A DNA stretch of 14,901 bases, from the NCBI GenBank assembly GCA_905373195.1, contig CAJPSG010000003.1:1-14901 (forward strand), written 5' to 3'. Of this stretch, positions 8,715 to 13,061 are shown in pieces. Within the stretch, counting starts at the first letter, position 1; each line of letters starts with the position of its first letter. The notes beneath the pieces were generated by a model. It did no database searches. It saw nothing but the letters and a program-made list of their open reading frames with translations, and was not told the origin of the DNA. The position numbers and the translations under genes were made by a program. This DNA comes from Kingella oralis. GTDB taxonomy: Bacteria; Pseudomonadota; Gammaproteobacteria; Burkholderiales; Neisseriaceae.

Positions 8715-10142
8715 ATGGATGATCCAATAATACTCGGTATTATTGCCGTGGCAGTATTGGCGGTGCTCGGTGCATTTTTCTTAAAAAATAAGCAAAAAGC
8801 ATCAGCAGGCAAGAAAGACAAAAAATCGAGCAGCGCACGCAGCAGCCGCAATGCCAAAGCGGATGATGATGACGAAGACGACTATTCAGCCGAACCCGCA
8901 GAACACGAAAATTGGGACACAGTCGCCACTACCAATGTGGTAGACGACACCAAAGTTTCCGTTCAAGACGTGGACACGCTCACCGAATTCAACGTATACA
9001 AACAATTCGGCTACTTTGACAAAGCCGCCGAATCGCTTTCGGCTTATCTTGCTAAAACGCCTAAAAAAGACCCCCAACTGGCCGGCGAGCTGGTTGAACT
9101 ATGGTTACAAGCCAAAAATGTTGATGCGGCTACCGAAGCCCTAACCCAATACCAAGACACGCTTTCTGAAGAACAAATTACTCAATTTGTTAAAGAAGGT
9201 TTGGCGATTGACGAAAACCACTTGGGTTTGCGTGTGTTAGCGGAAAACAGACTGGGTTGGAGCGTGAAGAAAACTGCCGAAGAAATTGGCGAAAAAACAG
9301 GCTTGGGACTTGAAGAAGCCAAACCTGTTCAACCCACGATTCGCGGCAAGAAAAAAGAAGCAGAAGTTGAGAAAAAACAACCGCATAAACCTTTGGTTGC
9401 TGGGCGTGGCGTGATTTCAGGCGTGAGCACGGATGAAAAAGGCGCGGTGTTGGCGTTTATGGAACCCGAGCAAAGTGTCAAACTCCTAAAAAATGTTTTG
9501 AGCTACGACGCTGCGGTGAAATACATGAATAAAGCCATCCGTAAATCAGAAAAACCTGCTTCCTTGCTGATTGATGCTTTATCGCTGGATTATCGCGCTA
9601 AAAACATCAACGGCTTTGCGGGGCATTTGTGGAATCTGTATTACAGCCTAGGTCAATATGGCCGACAAGTAAAAGAACGCATGCTTGGCTGGGGTTATAC
9701 ATTAGGACAACACCCCGTGTTTGACCGCCTAGAAGCCGCACCTAATGAAGCTGCATTGCGCGACTTGGGCATCCAACAAGGATGGATTGATGGAGGCAGC
9801 CTGAAAAAAGCGCGTTACCAAGCTCTTGTAACCGAAAAAGCGGATGTCAATGCCGAACCAAGAACCGCCACTGAGCGCATCTTGAAAGAAGCAGAATCCT
9901 TGTTGATGTATGGTCAATTAGACAACTCAATGGAATTGTTGGAAAACGCCATTGTTGAGTATCCACAAGAATCACAGCTTTATATCACCTTGTTTGACTT
10001 GTATGAACGTGCAGAAGAATGGACTCGCTTGGAAAATCTCTTGCAAGAATTGCGTCCAAAAGTTCAAACATTACCTGAGGAAGTAGTGTTGGCAATGAGC
10101 CAACTGCTACAACGATTTAGTAACGGCTCATTCGGACATTAA
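8715..10142 (+). CDS. Membrane-anchored FimV-like TPR protein
   Basis: 475 residues. One N-terminal membrane helix (about residues 5-22) follows an acidic start (MDDP) and precedes a very basic stretch (KNKQKASAGKKDKK), which by the positive-inside rule puts the long C-terminal part in the cytoplasm. A low-complexity Ser/Lys then Asp/Glu linker (about 30-60, with DDDDEDD) leads to TPR-like helical repeats: EFNVYKQFGYFDKAAESLSAYL (near 91-112) and, at the end, about 385-460 (LLMYGQLDNSMELLENAI). This resembles the C-terminal cytoplasmic part of FimV, without the periplasmic LysM half. Strong AAGGAG, 5-base spacing. First of five closely spaced genes. A perfect DUS inside encodes G-S-L-K. Likely a scaffold for the downstream GTPase module; function inferred. 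Confidence 0.85.
   Translation: MDDPIILGIIAVAVLAVLGAFFLKNKQKASAGKKDKKSSSARSSRNAKADDDDEDDYSAEPAEHENWDTVATTNVVDDTKVSVQDVDTLTEFNVYKQFGYFDKAAESLSAYLAKTPKKDPQLAGELVELWLQAKNVDAATEALTQYQDTLSEEQITQFVKEGLAIDENHLGLRVLAENRLGWSVKKTAEEIGEKTGLGLEEAKPVQPTIRGKKKEAEVEKKQPHKPLVAGRGVISGVSTDEKGAVLAFMEPEQSVKLLKNVLSYDAAVKYMNKAIRKSEKPASLLIDALSLDYRAKNINGFAGHLWNLYYSLGQYGRQVKERMLGWGYTLGQHPVFDRLEAAPNEAALRDLGIQQGWIDGGSLKKARYQALVTEKADVNAEPRTATERILKEAESLLMYGQLDNSMELLENAIVEYPQESQLYITLFDLYERAEEWTRLENLLQELRPKVQTLPEEVVLAMSQLLQRFSNGSFGH
9794..9805 (+). repeat. DNA uptake sequence (perfect 12-mer) inside the TPR gene
   Basis: AGGCAGCCTGAA on the coding strand of the FimV-like gene, encoding part of G-G-S-L-K-K, between the middle domain and the C-terminal TPR region. 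Confidence 0.88.
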
Positions 10143-10147
10143 ATAAA

Positions 10148-11275
10148 ATGAATCATGACTTACCCCACGTCAAAACGGTGAAGTTGTTGTTTGTAGCTAT
10201 GGACGACCAGCAACAAGCCATGTTCAAGATGGCATTTAAAATGCACAACACAACCAATTACGAAGTAATCAGCGCAAATTCTGGTGAAAAACCTGAGTTG
10301 GTTATCGTGGATGGCGATGGTGCAAATGGCTTGGCGACATGGCAAAAAACGAAACATGACTATTCAAGCAGCGTTGTGGTGTTTTTCTCCAAATCACCTC
10401 CTGCCGTAACCGCACCCTATCTGCCCAAGCCCATTAAATTTGATTCGCTCTTCCTGAATCTGCGCAATTTATTGCAAGGCAATGGCATTTGGGTGGTTCG
10501 CTCAAACATGGCAAATGCATCAGCGCATCCACACAACACCGCTACACAAGAGCAACCCACACGTTCGGCACACGCCCATCGTTCTAGCGAAGTAACCATT
10601 CCGCGCTTTGACCCTCGTGTTGGCATCTTAGGCTCTTTCAGAGAAATTTTGGCACACCAACGTAACGCAGCCATTTTGATTGATGACAAGCCTGTTCTCG
10701 CCATATTCCCTTCTACGCAACGCGTGTGGATTGCTGTGCCTCCTGAGCAACTACGAAACTTGTGTCGCAAAGAGCGCCCCAATATCAAGCTCAAAAACAT
10801 CCCAGATGAAAACAATATTCTAGACCGTGCCAATGCAACCGTTACCTCTACCATGTGGCAAGTGGCATTGTGGACAGCTAATGGGCGTTTGGTGCATCCC
10901 ATCAATCCCAATACCGTGTTCAAATTAAAAAGCTGGCCCAATCTAACGCGCTTAACGCCACTACCCGAAGCCATGCGCTTATCCGCATTTTTAACGAAAA
11001 CATCGGTTAGTTTAAATATGCTCTATAAACTGATGCCTTTGGATATGGCGGATATTTTGAACTATATTGCAGCAACGTATCTGACGGATTACTTGGAAAT
11101 TACACAACAAGTAAACGAAGCACCAAGCGCACAATCAGCCACTCGCGCCACTGTGAACACATCTGCAACGCCACGCCCAGAACAAGTGCGTGCGGCACGC
11201 GCAAATGAAGCACATACACAGCAAAAAACAGGCGGTCTATTGAGTCGTCTCATGAAAAAATTGCTGAATAAATAA
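10148..11275 (+). CDS. Receiver-like protein with unknown central domain
   Basis: 375 residues. The N-terminal ~110 residues look like a response-regulator receiver: acidic pair D19/D20 after strand 1 (KLLFVAMDD), candidate phospho-acceptor D55 in LVIVDGD, S81 after VVVFF, and the K94-P95 of YLPKP. The S81-to-K94 gap is 13 residues against about 22 in CheY, so helix 4 seems lost. Then a His/Ser/Thr/Ala-rich linker (about 119-147), an unrecognised alpha/beta domain (about 148-320), a second low-complexity linker, and a basic amphipathic C-terminal helix (GGLLSRLMKKLLNK). It starts 5 bases after the TPR gene with little Shine-Dalgarno, suggesting translational coupling. Architecture recalls RomR, but the sequence family is unknown to me. 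Confidence 0.8.
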   Translation: MNHDLPHVKTVKLLFVAMDDQQQAMFKMAFKMHNTTNYEVISANSGEKPELVIVDGDGANGLATWQKTKHDYSSSVVVFFSKSPPAVTAPYLPKPIKFDSLFLNLRNLLQGNGIWVVRSNMANASAHPHNTATQEQPTRSAHAHRSSEVTIPRFDPRVGILGSFREILAHQRNAAILIDDKPVLAIFPSTQRVWIAVPPEQLRNLCRKERPNIKLKNIPDENNILDRANATVTSTMWQVALWTANGRLVHPINPNTVFKLKSWPNLTRLTPLPEAMRLSAFLTKTSVSLNMLYKLMPLDMADILNYIAATYLTDYLEITQQVNEAPSAQSATRATVNTSATPRPEQVRAARANEAHTQQKTGGLLSRLMKKLLNK

Positions 11276-11291
11276 TGAATGAGGGATTACT

Positions 11292-11831
11292 ATGCTGATA
11301 GAAAATAAAATCATCTTTACAGGCCCCGTAGGCGTTGGCAAAACAACCGCCATTGCTGCCTTATCTGATGAACCACCCATCCAAACAGATGCCAGCGCAT
11401 CCGATATGACAGCCGTACGCAAAGGCTATACTACTGTTGCTATGGATTATGGTTTGATTCAATTAGATGAAAACACCAAAGTCCATTTATACGGCACGCC
11501 AGGGCAAGAACGATTTGACTTTATGTGGGACATTCTAAGCCAAGGTAGCATGGGCTTGATTTTGCTGCTGGATAATACCCGTGGTAACCCATTAAAAGAT
11601 TTGAAATTCTTTTTGGATTCTTTTGCAGATTTGCTTAAAACTGCTCCATTGGTGGTTGGTGTAACCAAAATGGATATTCGCGCCGTACCTGGTATTGATG
11701 TTTACCAAAAATACTTGGCACAAAATGGTTTCAATGTGCCTGTGTTTGAAGTGGATGCACGTAACGAAGAAGATGTAAAACAGCTCGTTACGGCTATGCT
11801 CTTTCAAATTGACCCAGGTTTAGAGGTGTAA
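11292..11831 (+). CDS. MglA-like small Ras-superfamily GTPase
   Basis: 179 residues, a single compact GTPase domain. G1/P-loop GPVGVGKT at residues 11-18; G2 candidate Thr in KGYTTVAMDYG (T47/T48); G3 YGTPGQERF at 67-75, where Gly replaces the usual Asp of DxxG (MglA also lacks it, having Thr) while the catalytic Gln (Q72) is kept; G4 TKMD at 125-128; G5-like DAR at 155-157. This fits the bacterial predicted GTPases grouped with MglA and SRP-receptor-beta-like proteins (COG2229). It should bind GTP in the cytoplasm and act as a switch. GAGGG lies six bases before the ATG. The next gene follows after one base, and two roadblock-type proteins downstream are natural partners. Confidence 0.9.
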   Translation: MLIENKIIFTGPVGVGKTTAIAALSDEPPIQTDASASDMTAVRKGYTTVAMDYGLIQLDENTKVHLYGTPGQERFDFMWDILSQGSMGLILLLDNTRGNPLKDLKFFLDSFADLLKTAPLVVGVTKMDIRAVPGIDVYQKYLAQNGFNVPVFEVDARNEEDVKQLVTAMLFQIDPGLEV

Positions 11832-11832
11832 C

Positions 11833-12492
11833 ATGGAATCGACTCTTTCATTACAAACAAATTTATACCCACACATCACACCCGCTGGCGCATTCTATGC
11901 CATTGCCAACAAAAGTGTGAGTGCCAGCCGTACATTGCTGTCTAATATTTTAAAAGCAGATAGCCAGCAGCCTATCACGCAAGAAAAATTGTTAGAATGG
12001 TCTGAAACCAGCGATATTGAATCGGCATTAAATTTACTCTATCGTTTGCAGCGTCTTGAATTTTTGTATGGTGGCGACACCCCAGAAGAAAAATTTGAGC
12101 TTCAAGATGACACTTTAGCAAATTTATTGCCTCATTTGTCGGATAGCCAAAAAGCATTGTTGATTGACCATGATGGCTTTTATTTTGCAAACTCTGGTTT
12201 TAACCATGAGGCAGCAGAAGAAGTGGCTATTTTGGCGAGTGAAGCCATTCGATTATCTGAGCGCCACGCTCTTTTGATTAAAAACAACCTAAACATTTAT
12301 CAAAATGCATGGGGTTTATGCGACCCAACAGGGCAAAGCGAATTAACATTCTTCCCCATCTACATCAACGATACAAAATACATTTTGGTAACAGGTGGCA
12401 CACCACAATTACACAAAGAAGCTTTTGTAACTTTGGTGCGCGCACTTTATAAAACGGTTGAAGCGGCTAACAATTTGGGCGCTGATTTTTAA
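11833..12492 (+). CDS. Winged-helix-like plus roadblock-like protein
   Basis: 219 residues; not a family I can name. Residues ~30-80 form a helical, winged-helix-like segment (SRTLLSNILKA ... ITQEKLLEWS ... ALNLLYRLQRLEFLYGG). Residues ~103-210 follow the roadblock/LC7 pattern: a strand and turn KALLIDHDGFYFANSGF, a long Ala/Glu-rich helix (EAAEEVAILASEAIRLS), later a strand KYILVTGGTPQ, then a last helix (VTLVRALYKTVEAA). No signal peptide or membrane helix. One base separates it from the GTPase stop, and its GAGG site lies inside that gene, so the two are almost certainly made together. Possible GTPase regulator or adaptor; the fold call is by eye only. Confidence 0.75.
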   Translation: MESTLSLQTNLYPHITPAGAFYAIANKSVSASRTLLSNILKADSQQPITQEKLLEWSETSDIESALNLLYRLQRLEFLYGGDTPEEKFELQDDTLANLLPHLSDSQKALLIDHDGFYFANSGFNHEAAEEVAILASEAIRLSERHALLIKNNLNIYQNAWGLCDPTGQSELTFFPIYINDTKYILVTGGTPQLHKEAFVTLVRALYKTVEAANNLGADF

Positions 12493-12516
12493 AAATTTGG
12501 ATTGGACTAATATAAA

Positions 12517-12882
12517 ATGCATGAACAACTTTTAACTTCCGTATTAAGCGATTTAAACAGCTCTTCTGTTGATATTACCGCTTCTGCCGTTATTTCTACT
12601 GATGGTTTGCCGATTGCGCATCTGTTGCCTGCCAACATTGACCCCGACCGTGTAGGTGCGATGTCTGCTGCATTGTTGGCTTTGGGCAACCGCACCACGC
12701 AAGAATTGGCGTGTGGCGAGTTGGAGCAAGTAATTGTGAAAGGCAAGCTGGGCTATACGCTGCTGATTCAAGCGGGTGGCACGAATGTGTTGTGCTTGAC
12801 GGCCAAAGAGAGCGCGAAACTGGGTTTGATTCTGCTGGATGCTCGCCGTGCGGCGCGTGCGATTGTGGATATTACGAAATAA
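12517..12882 (+). CDS. Roadblock/LC7 (MglB-like) protein
   Basis: 121 residues, a single roadblock/LC7 domain: N-terminal helix (LLTSVLSDLNSSS), strand-turn ASAVISTDGLPIAHLLP (about 22-38) with the family's S-x-D-G-L-P/x-I, long helix DRVGAMSAALLALGNRT (44-60), strands ELEQVIVKGKLGYTLLIQAG (68-87) and a C-terminal helix (GLILLDARRAARAIVDI). Roadblock proteins of the MglB type dimerise and act as GTPase-activating proteins or exchange factors for MglA. The gene starts 24 bases after the preceding one, with weak Shine-Dalgarno. No terminator follows; the next one is beyond the tRNA. Confidence 0.92.
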   Translation: MHEQLLTSVLSDLNSSSVDITASAVISTDGLPIAHLLPANIDPDRVGAMSAALLALGNRTTQELACGELEQVIVKGKLGYTLLIQAGGTNVLCLTAKESAKLGLILLDARRAARAIVDITK

Positions 12883-12950: not shown

Positions 12951-13026
12951 GGCCAGATAGCTCAGTCGGTAGAGCAACGGATTGAAAATCCGTGTGTCGG
13001 CAGTTCGATCCTGCCTCTGGCCACCA
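12951..13026 (+). tRNA. tRNA-Phe (GAA)
   Basis: 76 bases with an encoded CCA end. The acceptor stem GGCCAGA (12951-12957) pairs with TCTGGCC (13016-13022), then discriminator A and CCA. The anticodon stem ACGGA/TCCGT encloses TTGAAAA, with anticodon GAA at 12984-12986 reading UUU/UUC. The T arm is GGCAG-TTCGATC-CTGCC. It has its own promoter and terminator but may also be read through from the roadblock operon. Confidence 0.97.
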
Positions 13027-13033
13027 AATATTT

Positions 13034-13061
13034 AAGCCCAAACATTTGTTTGGGCTTTTCG
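13034..13061 (+). terminator. Rho-independent terminator after tRNA-Phe
   Basis: AAGCCCAAACA (13034-13044) pairs with TGTTTGGGCTT (13047-13057), followed by TTC and a T-rich stretch. In practice the top of the stem opens into a four-base or larger loop. It ends the tRNA transcript and probably also the five-gene operon upstream. It lies only about 13 bases before the ribosome binding site of the peptidase gene. Confidence 0.85.

What the first reader, a model, noticed from the sequence alone, without database searches (positions are those of the whole stretch)
8715..12882. Five-gene MglA/MglB-like GTPase module with a FimV-like scaffold and a receiver protein
Five plus-strand genes with gaps of 5, 16, 1 and 24 bases encode a membrane-anchored TPR protein, a receiver-like protein, a Ras-like GTPase, a winged-helix/roadblock-like protein and a roadblock protein. 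The motifs for GTPase and roadblock are seen directly. From established knowledge, MglA (GTPase), MglB (roadblock GAP) and RomR (receiver) set the leading pole in Myxococcus, while FimV and PilG organise type IV pili at Pseudomonas poles. I infer a self-contained spatial switch for type IV pili, surface motility or cell polarity in this Neisseriaceae lineage. I do not know of a characterised system with exactly this set of five.
Basis: partly seen in the sequence, partly recalled or inferred. Interest (0 to 1): 0.85.

Follow-up and report, generated by a model that had tools for sequence, protein, structure and literature searches.

The report
Conserved MglA-type GTPase switch operon
A five-gene bacterial operon built round a small Ras-like GTPase keeps the same gene order across many beta- and gammaproteobacteria, and its so-called orphan partner gene often sits beside sensor-like genes, which suggests an environment-controlled switch, probably for surface movement by pili.

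Summary
In detail: five plus-strand genes at 8715-12882, gaps 5, 16, 1 and 24. Four of the five are in print as the 'group 3' MglA neighbourhood (PMC4316618), and a Snodgrassella mgl locus with a remote mglB-3 has a motility-like phenotype (PMC11112851). So the GTPase/roadblock core is a member of a known kind. What I add: (1) the TPR gene is a constant fifth member; order T-R-G-W-B holds in the 80 best loci (3 cut by contig ends), and the set is jointly present or absent in Neisseriaceae genomes. (2) Protein R has a receiver fold with an incomplete acidic site, a winged-helix-like part and a C-terminal amphipathic helix like a membrane anchor; databases often call it 'alpha-glucan phosphorylase'. 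(3) The orphan roadblock often lies beside PAS and PhnD-like genes; the same genes follow the module in some gammaproteobacteria. (4) Elsewhere an ODP-family gene or a fused Ser/Thr kinase adjoins it, and FimV/HubP and bactofilin genes neighbour it in Thiothrix relatives. Likeliest role: a sensor-gated GTPase switch for type IV pili. That output is inferred; phyletic support is weak. 'FimV-like' is only partly right.

The parts
8715..10142 (+). T: N-terminal transmembrane segment (aa 5-23) followed by TPR regions, cytoplasmic by the positive-inside rule; scaffold or effector candidate
   Evidence: Pfam TPR_19 6.6e-7, TPR_14 2.5e-6; KD19 = 3.04 with 7 K/R in the next 15 residues; TM-like segment in 61 of 62 long T and 0 of 12 short T
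10148..11275 (+). R: degenerate receiver (aa 9-112), disordered linker (120-145), alpha/beta middle part (148-217), winged-helix-like part (232-320, from predicted secondary structure), C-terminal amphipathic helix
11292..11831 (+). G: MglA-type small GTPase, group 3 signature (GTPGQ, TT in switch I, D-x-R at G5)
   Evidence: Pfam Ras 1e-9; motif counts over 81 sequences
11833..12492 (+). W: winged helix (aa 12-81, from predicted secondary structure) plus diverged roadblock domain (aa 94-217)
12517..12882 (+). B: canonical roadblock/LC7 protein, MglB-like GAP candidate with invariant S-x-D-G-L
   Evidence: Pfam Robl_LC7 5.2e-13; D and G 80/80; PDB matches to Asgard roadblock 7f8m 1.9e-19, CvnB5 3leq 5e-5, Thermus MglB only 0.45

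Best explanation
The window carries the core of a group 3 MglA GTPase switch. Shown by sequence and synteny: five genes T-R-G-W-B form one conserved unit. Inferred mechanism: G toggles between GTP and GDP; B (with W as a diverged roadblock partner, as homo- or heterodimer) sets the rate of GTP hydrolysis; R, held at the inner membrane by its C-terminal amphipathic helix, is a pseudo-receiver adaptor that recruits or senses G; T, anchored by its N-terminal helix, offers cytoplasmic TPRs to G-GTP and to the motor, as SgmX does for MglA in Myxococcus. The signal enters through roadblock-linked sensors that differ by lineage: a PAS protein and a PhnD-like binding protein (next to B in some gammaproteobacteria; next to the 'orphan' roadblock B' in many Neisseriaceae that have one), an ODP-family protein in other betaproteobacteria, or a Ser/Thr kinase fused to G. 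The output is most likely type IV pilus activity or placement, that is, surface motility.
For: Order T-R-G-W-B in the 80 best loci, and R, W, B beside G in 28, 27 and 28 of the 30 best class-level loci, T in 16 (flanks there reach only about 1.5 kb). Joint presence: G and roadblock in the same 70 of 83 genomes, R and near full-length T in the same 69; in 369 class genomes R and G together in 51, R only 10, G only 14, neither 294. Group 3 motifs as defined in PMC4316618 (sections 15 and 18 read). W contains a roadblock fold. R has a receiver fold and an amphipathic C-terminal helix. Sensor-like genes: PAS 10, PhnD-like 13, ODP 26 of 80 loci; orphan roadblock beside PhnD-like in 6 of 7 loci read, beside PAS in 5 of 7; PhnD-like in 33 of 70 G-positive and 0 of 13 G-negative genomes. 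FimV/HubP-family gene downstream in 7 of 80 and bactofilin upstream in 6 of 80 loci. Output: a Snodgrassella strain with orphan mglB-3 G78R spreads differently on 0.5% agar, and its authors name T4P (PMC11112851, sections 18 and 19 and passages); L153 has G at residue 78 of its copy (120 aa from my chosen start, 121 in the paper). Myxococcus precedent MglA/SgmX(TPR)/FrzS(pseudo-receiver) (PMC11580455, passages).
Against: No physical interaction was tested; no multimer prediction was possible. Phyletic link to pili is weak: PilQ in 61 of 65 G-positive against 248 of 304 other class genomes (p 0.015), but 47 of 51 against 262 of 318 when R and G are both required (p 0.10); kinship was not corrected. 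11 of the 13 module-free Neisseriaceae genomes have a PilQ match, 8 of them strong. No T4P gene was noticed beside the module, though flanking genes were only clustered and a few scanned. 37 of 70 G-positive genomes lack the PhnD-like gene, and none of these sensor-like genes is beside the module in the window. SgmX and FimV models match T only weakly (5 and 1 of 32). The moment of the R helix exceeds shuffles by a mean z of only 1.4. B' has at least two origins in the tree, so its link to PAS/PhnD may be repeated recruitment.
Confidence: 0.55

Rival explanations
1. A signal-transduction system that regulates transcription: R is a response regulator-like DNA-binding protein and W a second winged-helix regulator, both gated by the GTPase.
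For: Proposed in PMC4316618 for group 3 (section 18); winged-helix-like regions predicted in R (232-320) and W (12-81); single R homologs hit HTH_29 and MarR_2 weakly (E 0.05-0.1).
Against: R ends in an amphipathic helix like a membrane anchor (43 of 46); its strictest motif is WPN-x-TR, and of 46 members only one each matched HTH_29 and MarR_2, at E 0.05-0.1; T is a membrane protein.
Confidence: 0.17
2. A polarity, division-site or envelope-organising module that is not dedicated to pili; pili effects are secondary.
For: Bactofilin, FimV/HubP-family and OmpA/BON genes flank the module in Thiothrix relatives; PilQ association is weak; module occurs in Alysiella and Conchiformibius, which are multicellular (recalled).
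Against: G kept in 7 of 12 genomes without true MreB (one of them with interrupted frames), against 63 of 71 with it, so this shape machinery is not a requirement; those flanking genes are limited to one lineage in the 80 loci.
Confidence: 0.2
3. One reading: a self-contained FimV-type polar landmark with its own GTPase, special to Neisseriaceae.
For: T is membrane-anchored with TPRs; the T profile scores 33-34 bits on the TPR part of FimV frames of two gammaproteobacteria (L141, L142).
Against: Separate FimV_Cterm matches above cut-off in 10 of 10 genomes; only 1 of 32 T proteins matches FimV_Cterm, at 8.6e-4, and none FimV_core at E up to 0.1; the module is not limited to Neisseriaceae.
Confidence: 0.08

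Closest known systems
Group 3 MglA systems (Wuichet and Sogaard-Andersen 2014, PMC4316618)
   Same: MglA with GTPGQ and DAR, one or two MglB, and the unknown receiver/winged-helix protein encoded alongside
   Different: In the main text I found no mention of TPR, 'PAS domain', phosphonate, diiron or FimV (term searches), and sections 15 and 18 do not describe a winged helix in an MglB, a kinase fusion or an anchor helix; its supplementary tables were not seen
Snodgrassella mgl locus (PMC11112851)
   Same: One mglA, two coupled mglB and one remote mglB in the same family; G78 of the remote copy is present in L153
   Different: The paper calls mglB-3 orphan; in L153 it lies near PAS and PhnD-like genes. 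The terms 'PAS domain', tetratricopeptide, TPR and phosphonate do not occur in its main text
Myxococcus MglA/MglB with SgmX (TPR), FrzS (pseudo-receiver), RomR
   Same: Same kinds of parts: Ras-like GTPase, roadblock GAP, TPR effector, receiver-like adaptor
   Different: Group 1 GTPase with intrinsic arginine; parts encoded apart; T and R are not shown to be homologous to SgmX, FrzS or RomR
Streptomyces conservons (CvnA-D, group 2)
   Same: Operon of GTPase, roadblock and an unknown protein; CvnB5 structure is among the matches of B and W
   Different: No histidine kinase among the five proteins
FimV/HubP polar landmark family
   Same: Transmembrane helix plus TPR-like repeats
   Different: T has no FimV_core match and almost no FimV_Cterm match; FimV is separate in the 10 genomes tested

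Membership tests
MglA group 3 | G3 motif GTPGQ | tested here: met
   G68 and T69 81/81, P70 80/81, G71 81/81, Q72 80/81
MglA group 3 | Thr, not Arg, beside the conserved switch I threonine | tested here: met
   T47 and T48 81/81; definition from PMC4316618 section 15
MglA group 3 | DAR-type G5 | tested here: met
   D155 81/81, position 156 A 54, G 18, C 6, R157 81/81
MglA group 3 | G4 that deviates from [NT]KxD, often without the Lys | tested here: inconclusive
   Window has TKMD; the Lys is kept in 69 of 81, R in 8, Q in 4, so these members deviate less than the paper's wording ('often lack') suggests
MglA group 3 | Neighbouring unknown protein with receiver N-terminus and winged-helix C-terminus, and one or two MglB | tested here: met
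   R model, W and B; the winged helix in R rests on predicted secondary structure only
MglA group 3 | Placement in the group 3 clade of a GTPase tree | not tested
   No tree with groups 1-5 was built
MglB (roadblock/LC7 GAP) | Roadblock fold | tested here: met
MglB (roadblock/LC7 GAP) | Conserved D-G pair | tested here: met
   B: D 80/80, G 80/80. In W not kept: N 49, D 17, Q 6, R 6, S 2, one gap, with G 80 and one gap
MglB (roadblock/LC7 GAP) | GAP activity on the partner GTPase | not testable with these tools
   Biochemical
Response regulator | Receiver fold | tested here: met
Response regulator | Full phosphorylation site (acidic pair, Asp, Thr/Ser, Lys) | tested here: not met
   Asp 55 (78/78) and Lys 94 (79/79) invariant, but position 19 is D in 56 of 79 and position 20 is D or E in 46; members such as L061, L071 and L079 lack the pair. 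The window protein itself has D19 and D20
FimV/HubP | FimV_core (LysM) N-terminus | tested here: not met
   No TIGR03505 match at E up to 0.1 in 32 T proteins
FimV/HubP | FimV_Cterm TIGR03504 | tested here: not met
   1 of 32, E 8.6e-4; none in the window protein at E up to 1
SgmX | NCBIfam SgmX model | tested here: inconclusive
   5 of 32 members at E down to 1.2e-4, as other TPR models also match
RomR | Homology to RomR | not tested
   No RomR sequence was compared
Conservon (Cvn) | CvnA histidine kinase in the operon | tested here: not met
   No kinase match in the five window proteins; in three class-level genomes a Ser/Thr kinase, not a histidine kinase, is fused to G

The most novel reading that the evidence does not exclude
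Group 3 MglA systems are a widespread sensory switch that replaces a chemotaxis-type input: a fixed membrane GTPase core (T-R-G-W-B) plus exchangeable sensor modules wired in through roadblock proteins (PAS with PhnD-like binding protein, ODP oxygen/iron-type protein, or a fused Ser/Thr kinase). In Neisseriaceae the sensor arm sits at a second locus with its own roadblock, which explains the 'orphan' MglB and why selection in a new host environment hit just that gene in Snodgrassella.
Probability: 0.35. Interest if true: 0.82.

Novelty: new variant of a known kind. Interest (0 to 1): 0.6.

Why it matters
Type IV pili of Neisseriaceae are well studied, but how their activity is tied to environment and position is not. 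A conserved GTPase operon with lineage-specific sensor-like genes gives a concrete candidate. Linking the 'orphan' mglB to PAS and PhnD-like genes gives a testable reason for a published colonisation phenotype, and the R family's label 'alpha-glucan phosphorylase' in public records hides the system from searches.

Tried and rejected
Window's own genome: not held, so whether this genome has the B'-PAS-PhnD cluster is unknown; its closest genome by GTPase (G089, 96%) has it.

R-G fusion in L074: set aside, because that record holds unknown residues in this frame.

Cell-shape dependence: tested with MreB; G present in 7 of 12 genomes without true MreB and 63 of 71 with it (p 0.018, not corrected for kinship), so a tendency but no strict dependence.

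PilQ co-occurrence at family level: uninformative, 79 of 83. Class level: weak.

GTPase profile against PDB with a strict cut of 1e-12: none; the single-sequence search had found Rab/Ras chains best (4.5e-7) and MglA chains at 3e-4. R profile against PDB sequences: only borderline receivers, best 0.013. T profile against PDB: mainly designed TPR proteins.

Fold searches covered mainly R 8-119 and W 89-211; the middle and winged-helix parts of R and the winged helix of W were not searched apart, so no claim is made on the novelty of their folds. Absence of families from those lists is not used as evidence.

Promoter and terminator scans: counts no higher than chance (5 against 8.8, 7 against 6.4); one long stem at 13034-13057 after the tRNA.
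Full report
OBSERVATION. I call them T, R, G, W, B. Upstream on the minus strand lie a methionine-binding-type lipoprotein and the ATP synthase operon (recognised by eye, no family search); downstream lie a tRNA-Phe at 12951-13026 and a metallopeptidase-like ORF (by eye). The nearest copies of R are unnamed metagenome proteins at up to 98%; the nearest named ones are Wielerella bovis at 75% and Kingella kingae at 73% (best 120 of 255 listed), and the nearest named copies of G are Conchiformibius and Alysiella crassa at 93%. The organism is thus a Neisseriaceae, not identified further.

SYNTENY. In those 80 the order T-R-G-W-B on one strand holds wherever the contig allows: hits for T in 78, R 80, G 80, W 80, B 79; the misses are contig ends; T and W in L053 and R in L066 are split over frames, and R and G share one frame with unknown residues in L074. 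They include Neisseria, Snodgrassella, Eikenella, Alysiella, Stenoxybacter, Chromobacterium, Aquitalea, Vogesella, Acidithiobacillus, Thiothrix and Methylomonas. T is long with an N-terminal transmembrane segment in 61 of 62 long copies and short without one in 12 of 12 short copies (copies that start at a contig end left out). In the 30 best loci of a class-wide draw R, W, B and T adjoin G in 28, 27, 28 and 16, with flanks of about 1.5 kb.

PRESENCE AND ABSENCE. Among 83 genomes of the family, G is in 70, Robl_LC7 in the same 70, R in 69, T in 72, of which 69 near full length (one, G023, in two frames) and 3 partial. The 69 are the 70 without G070, which has only a divergent G paralog. The same 13 genomes lack G, roadblock and R; two of them (G020, G066) keep partial T-like matches. 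Some of the 13 are small or draft genomes, so incompleteness is possible. In 369 class genomes: G 65 (E up to 1e-20), R 61 (E up to 1e-10), both 51; only a few candidates per genome were scored, so these are lower bounds.

T AND FimV. In 32 T proteins FimV_Cterm matches 1 and the SgmX model 5, all weakly. The T profile scores 33-34 bits on the TPR part of FimV frames (cut at locus ends) of two gammaproteobacteria and reports none of the other eight loci. All 10 genomes tested have a separate FimV_Cterm match above the cut-off. So T resembles FimV in build, but is not it.

SENSOR-LIKE GENES. In 10 of 80 loci, mostly gammaproteobacterial, a PAS gene follows B directly and a PhnD-like PF12974 gene comes next; three betaproteobacterial loci have the PhnD-like gene without PAS (13 of 80 in all). 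In 26 of 80 loci, mostly Chromobacteriaceae and ruminant Neisseriaceae, an ODP-family gene (PF19583) lies directly upstream of T. ODP of Treponema denticola is an oxygen sensor for chemotaxis (PMC7666581, passages); transfer of that role is inference. In L134, L135 and L138 a Ser/Thr kinase domain is fused to G between R and W. In 7 of 80 loci (Thiothrix type) a FimV/HubP-type gene lies downstream (three of the seven were scanned: L072 passes both FimV cut-offs, L067 and L074 only FimV_Cterm), and in 6 a bactofilin gene lies upstream on the other strand.

THE ORPHAN ROADBLOCK. By my count, 23 family genomes have a roadblock match outside the module and away from paralogous GTPases. I read seven such loci. 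Six have a PhnD-like gene and five a PAS gene beside the roadblock; one (Stenoxybacter) has neither. The PAS proteins are 51-68% identical to those after B in the modules in their three best matches each. The PhnD-like gene occurs in 33 of 83 genomes, all 33 with G, none of the 13 without; by hand comparison it lies within 2 kb of a non-module roadblock in 18 of those 33, that is in 18 of the 23. L047 (Hydrogenophilus MAG) has B-PhnD-B-PhnD in tandem after the module, a possible intermediate. A tree of 45 roadblocks puts the seven orphans in two places: at least two origins, with long branches that make this uncertain. The Snodgrassella orphan in L153 has G at residue 78, the site changed in PMC11112851.

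OUTPUT. The only experimental data found are the Snodgrassella ones: spreading on 0.5% agar and competition. PilQ co-occurrence is weak and uncorrected for kinship. Hence the pilus output is the likeliest but unproved reading. PMC11580455 (passages) supplies the model MglA-SgmX-FrzS; PMC10653833 (passages) says that Myxococcus is not predicted to encode FimV.

LITERATURE SCOPE. Ten searches of the held open-access library; none gave a paper that joins MglB, PAS domain and phosphonate. Term searches found no 'PAS domain', tetratricopeptide or phosphonate in the main texts of PMC4316618 and PMC11112851. Subscription papers and supplements were not seen.

Noticed in passing
L134:1489-3009 (-), L135:556-2052 (+), L138:322-2049 (+): Single open frames join a Ser/Thr protein kinase domain (PF00069) to the GTPase, between R and W, in three genomes of the class-wide draw.
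   Followed up: partly
26 of 80 loci, e.g. L030:2454-3197, L042, L055: ODP-family metallo-beta-lactamase-fold gene directly upstream of T, likely in the same operon.
   Followed up: partly
L151-L155, L157: The 'orphan' roadblock gene is beside PAS and/or PhnD-like genes in six of seven loci read; L151 has two PAS genes round it.
   Followed up: yes
L067, L070, L071, L072, L074, L078, L080: FimV/HubP-type gene downstream; bactofilin gene divergently upstream in six of these seven.
   Followed up: partly
window 10148-11275 and homologs P0022, P0033, P0047, P0072: R family carries the database name 'alpha-glucan phosphorylase', not supported by any search here.
   Followed up: partly
window 12951-13026; L001:2887-2962; L002:2993-3068; L019:7065-7140: tRNA-Phe flanks the module downstream on the same strand in the window and L019, but upstream on the opposite strand in L001 and L002: the module seems inverted relative to the tRNA.
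   Followed up: partly
G033, G060; G213, G406, G456: GTPase frames split or interrupted by a stop, so some genomes may be losing a working copy.
   Followed up: no
G067-G069, G071-G074; L033:8390-10668 (-): Some Neisseriaceae genomes carry two or three GTPase matches; in L033 (sheep omasum MAG) a second R-G-B-like set lies inverted beside the module.
   Followed up: no
L047:5544-9750: Tandem B-PhnD-B-PhnD arrangement after the module.
   Followed up: no
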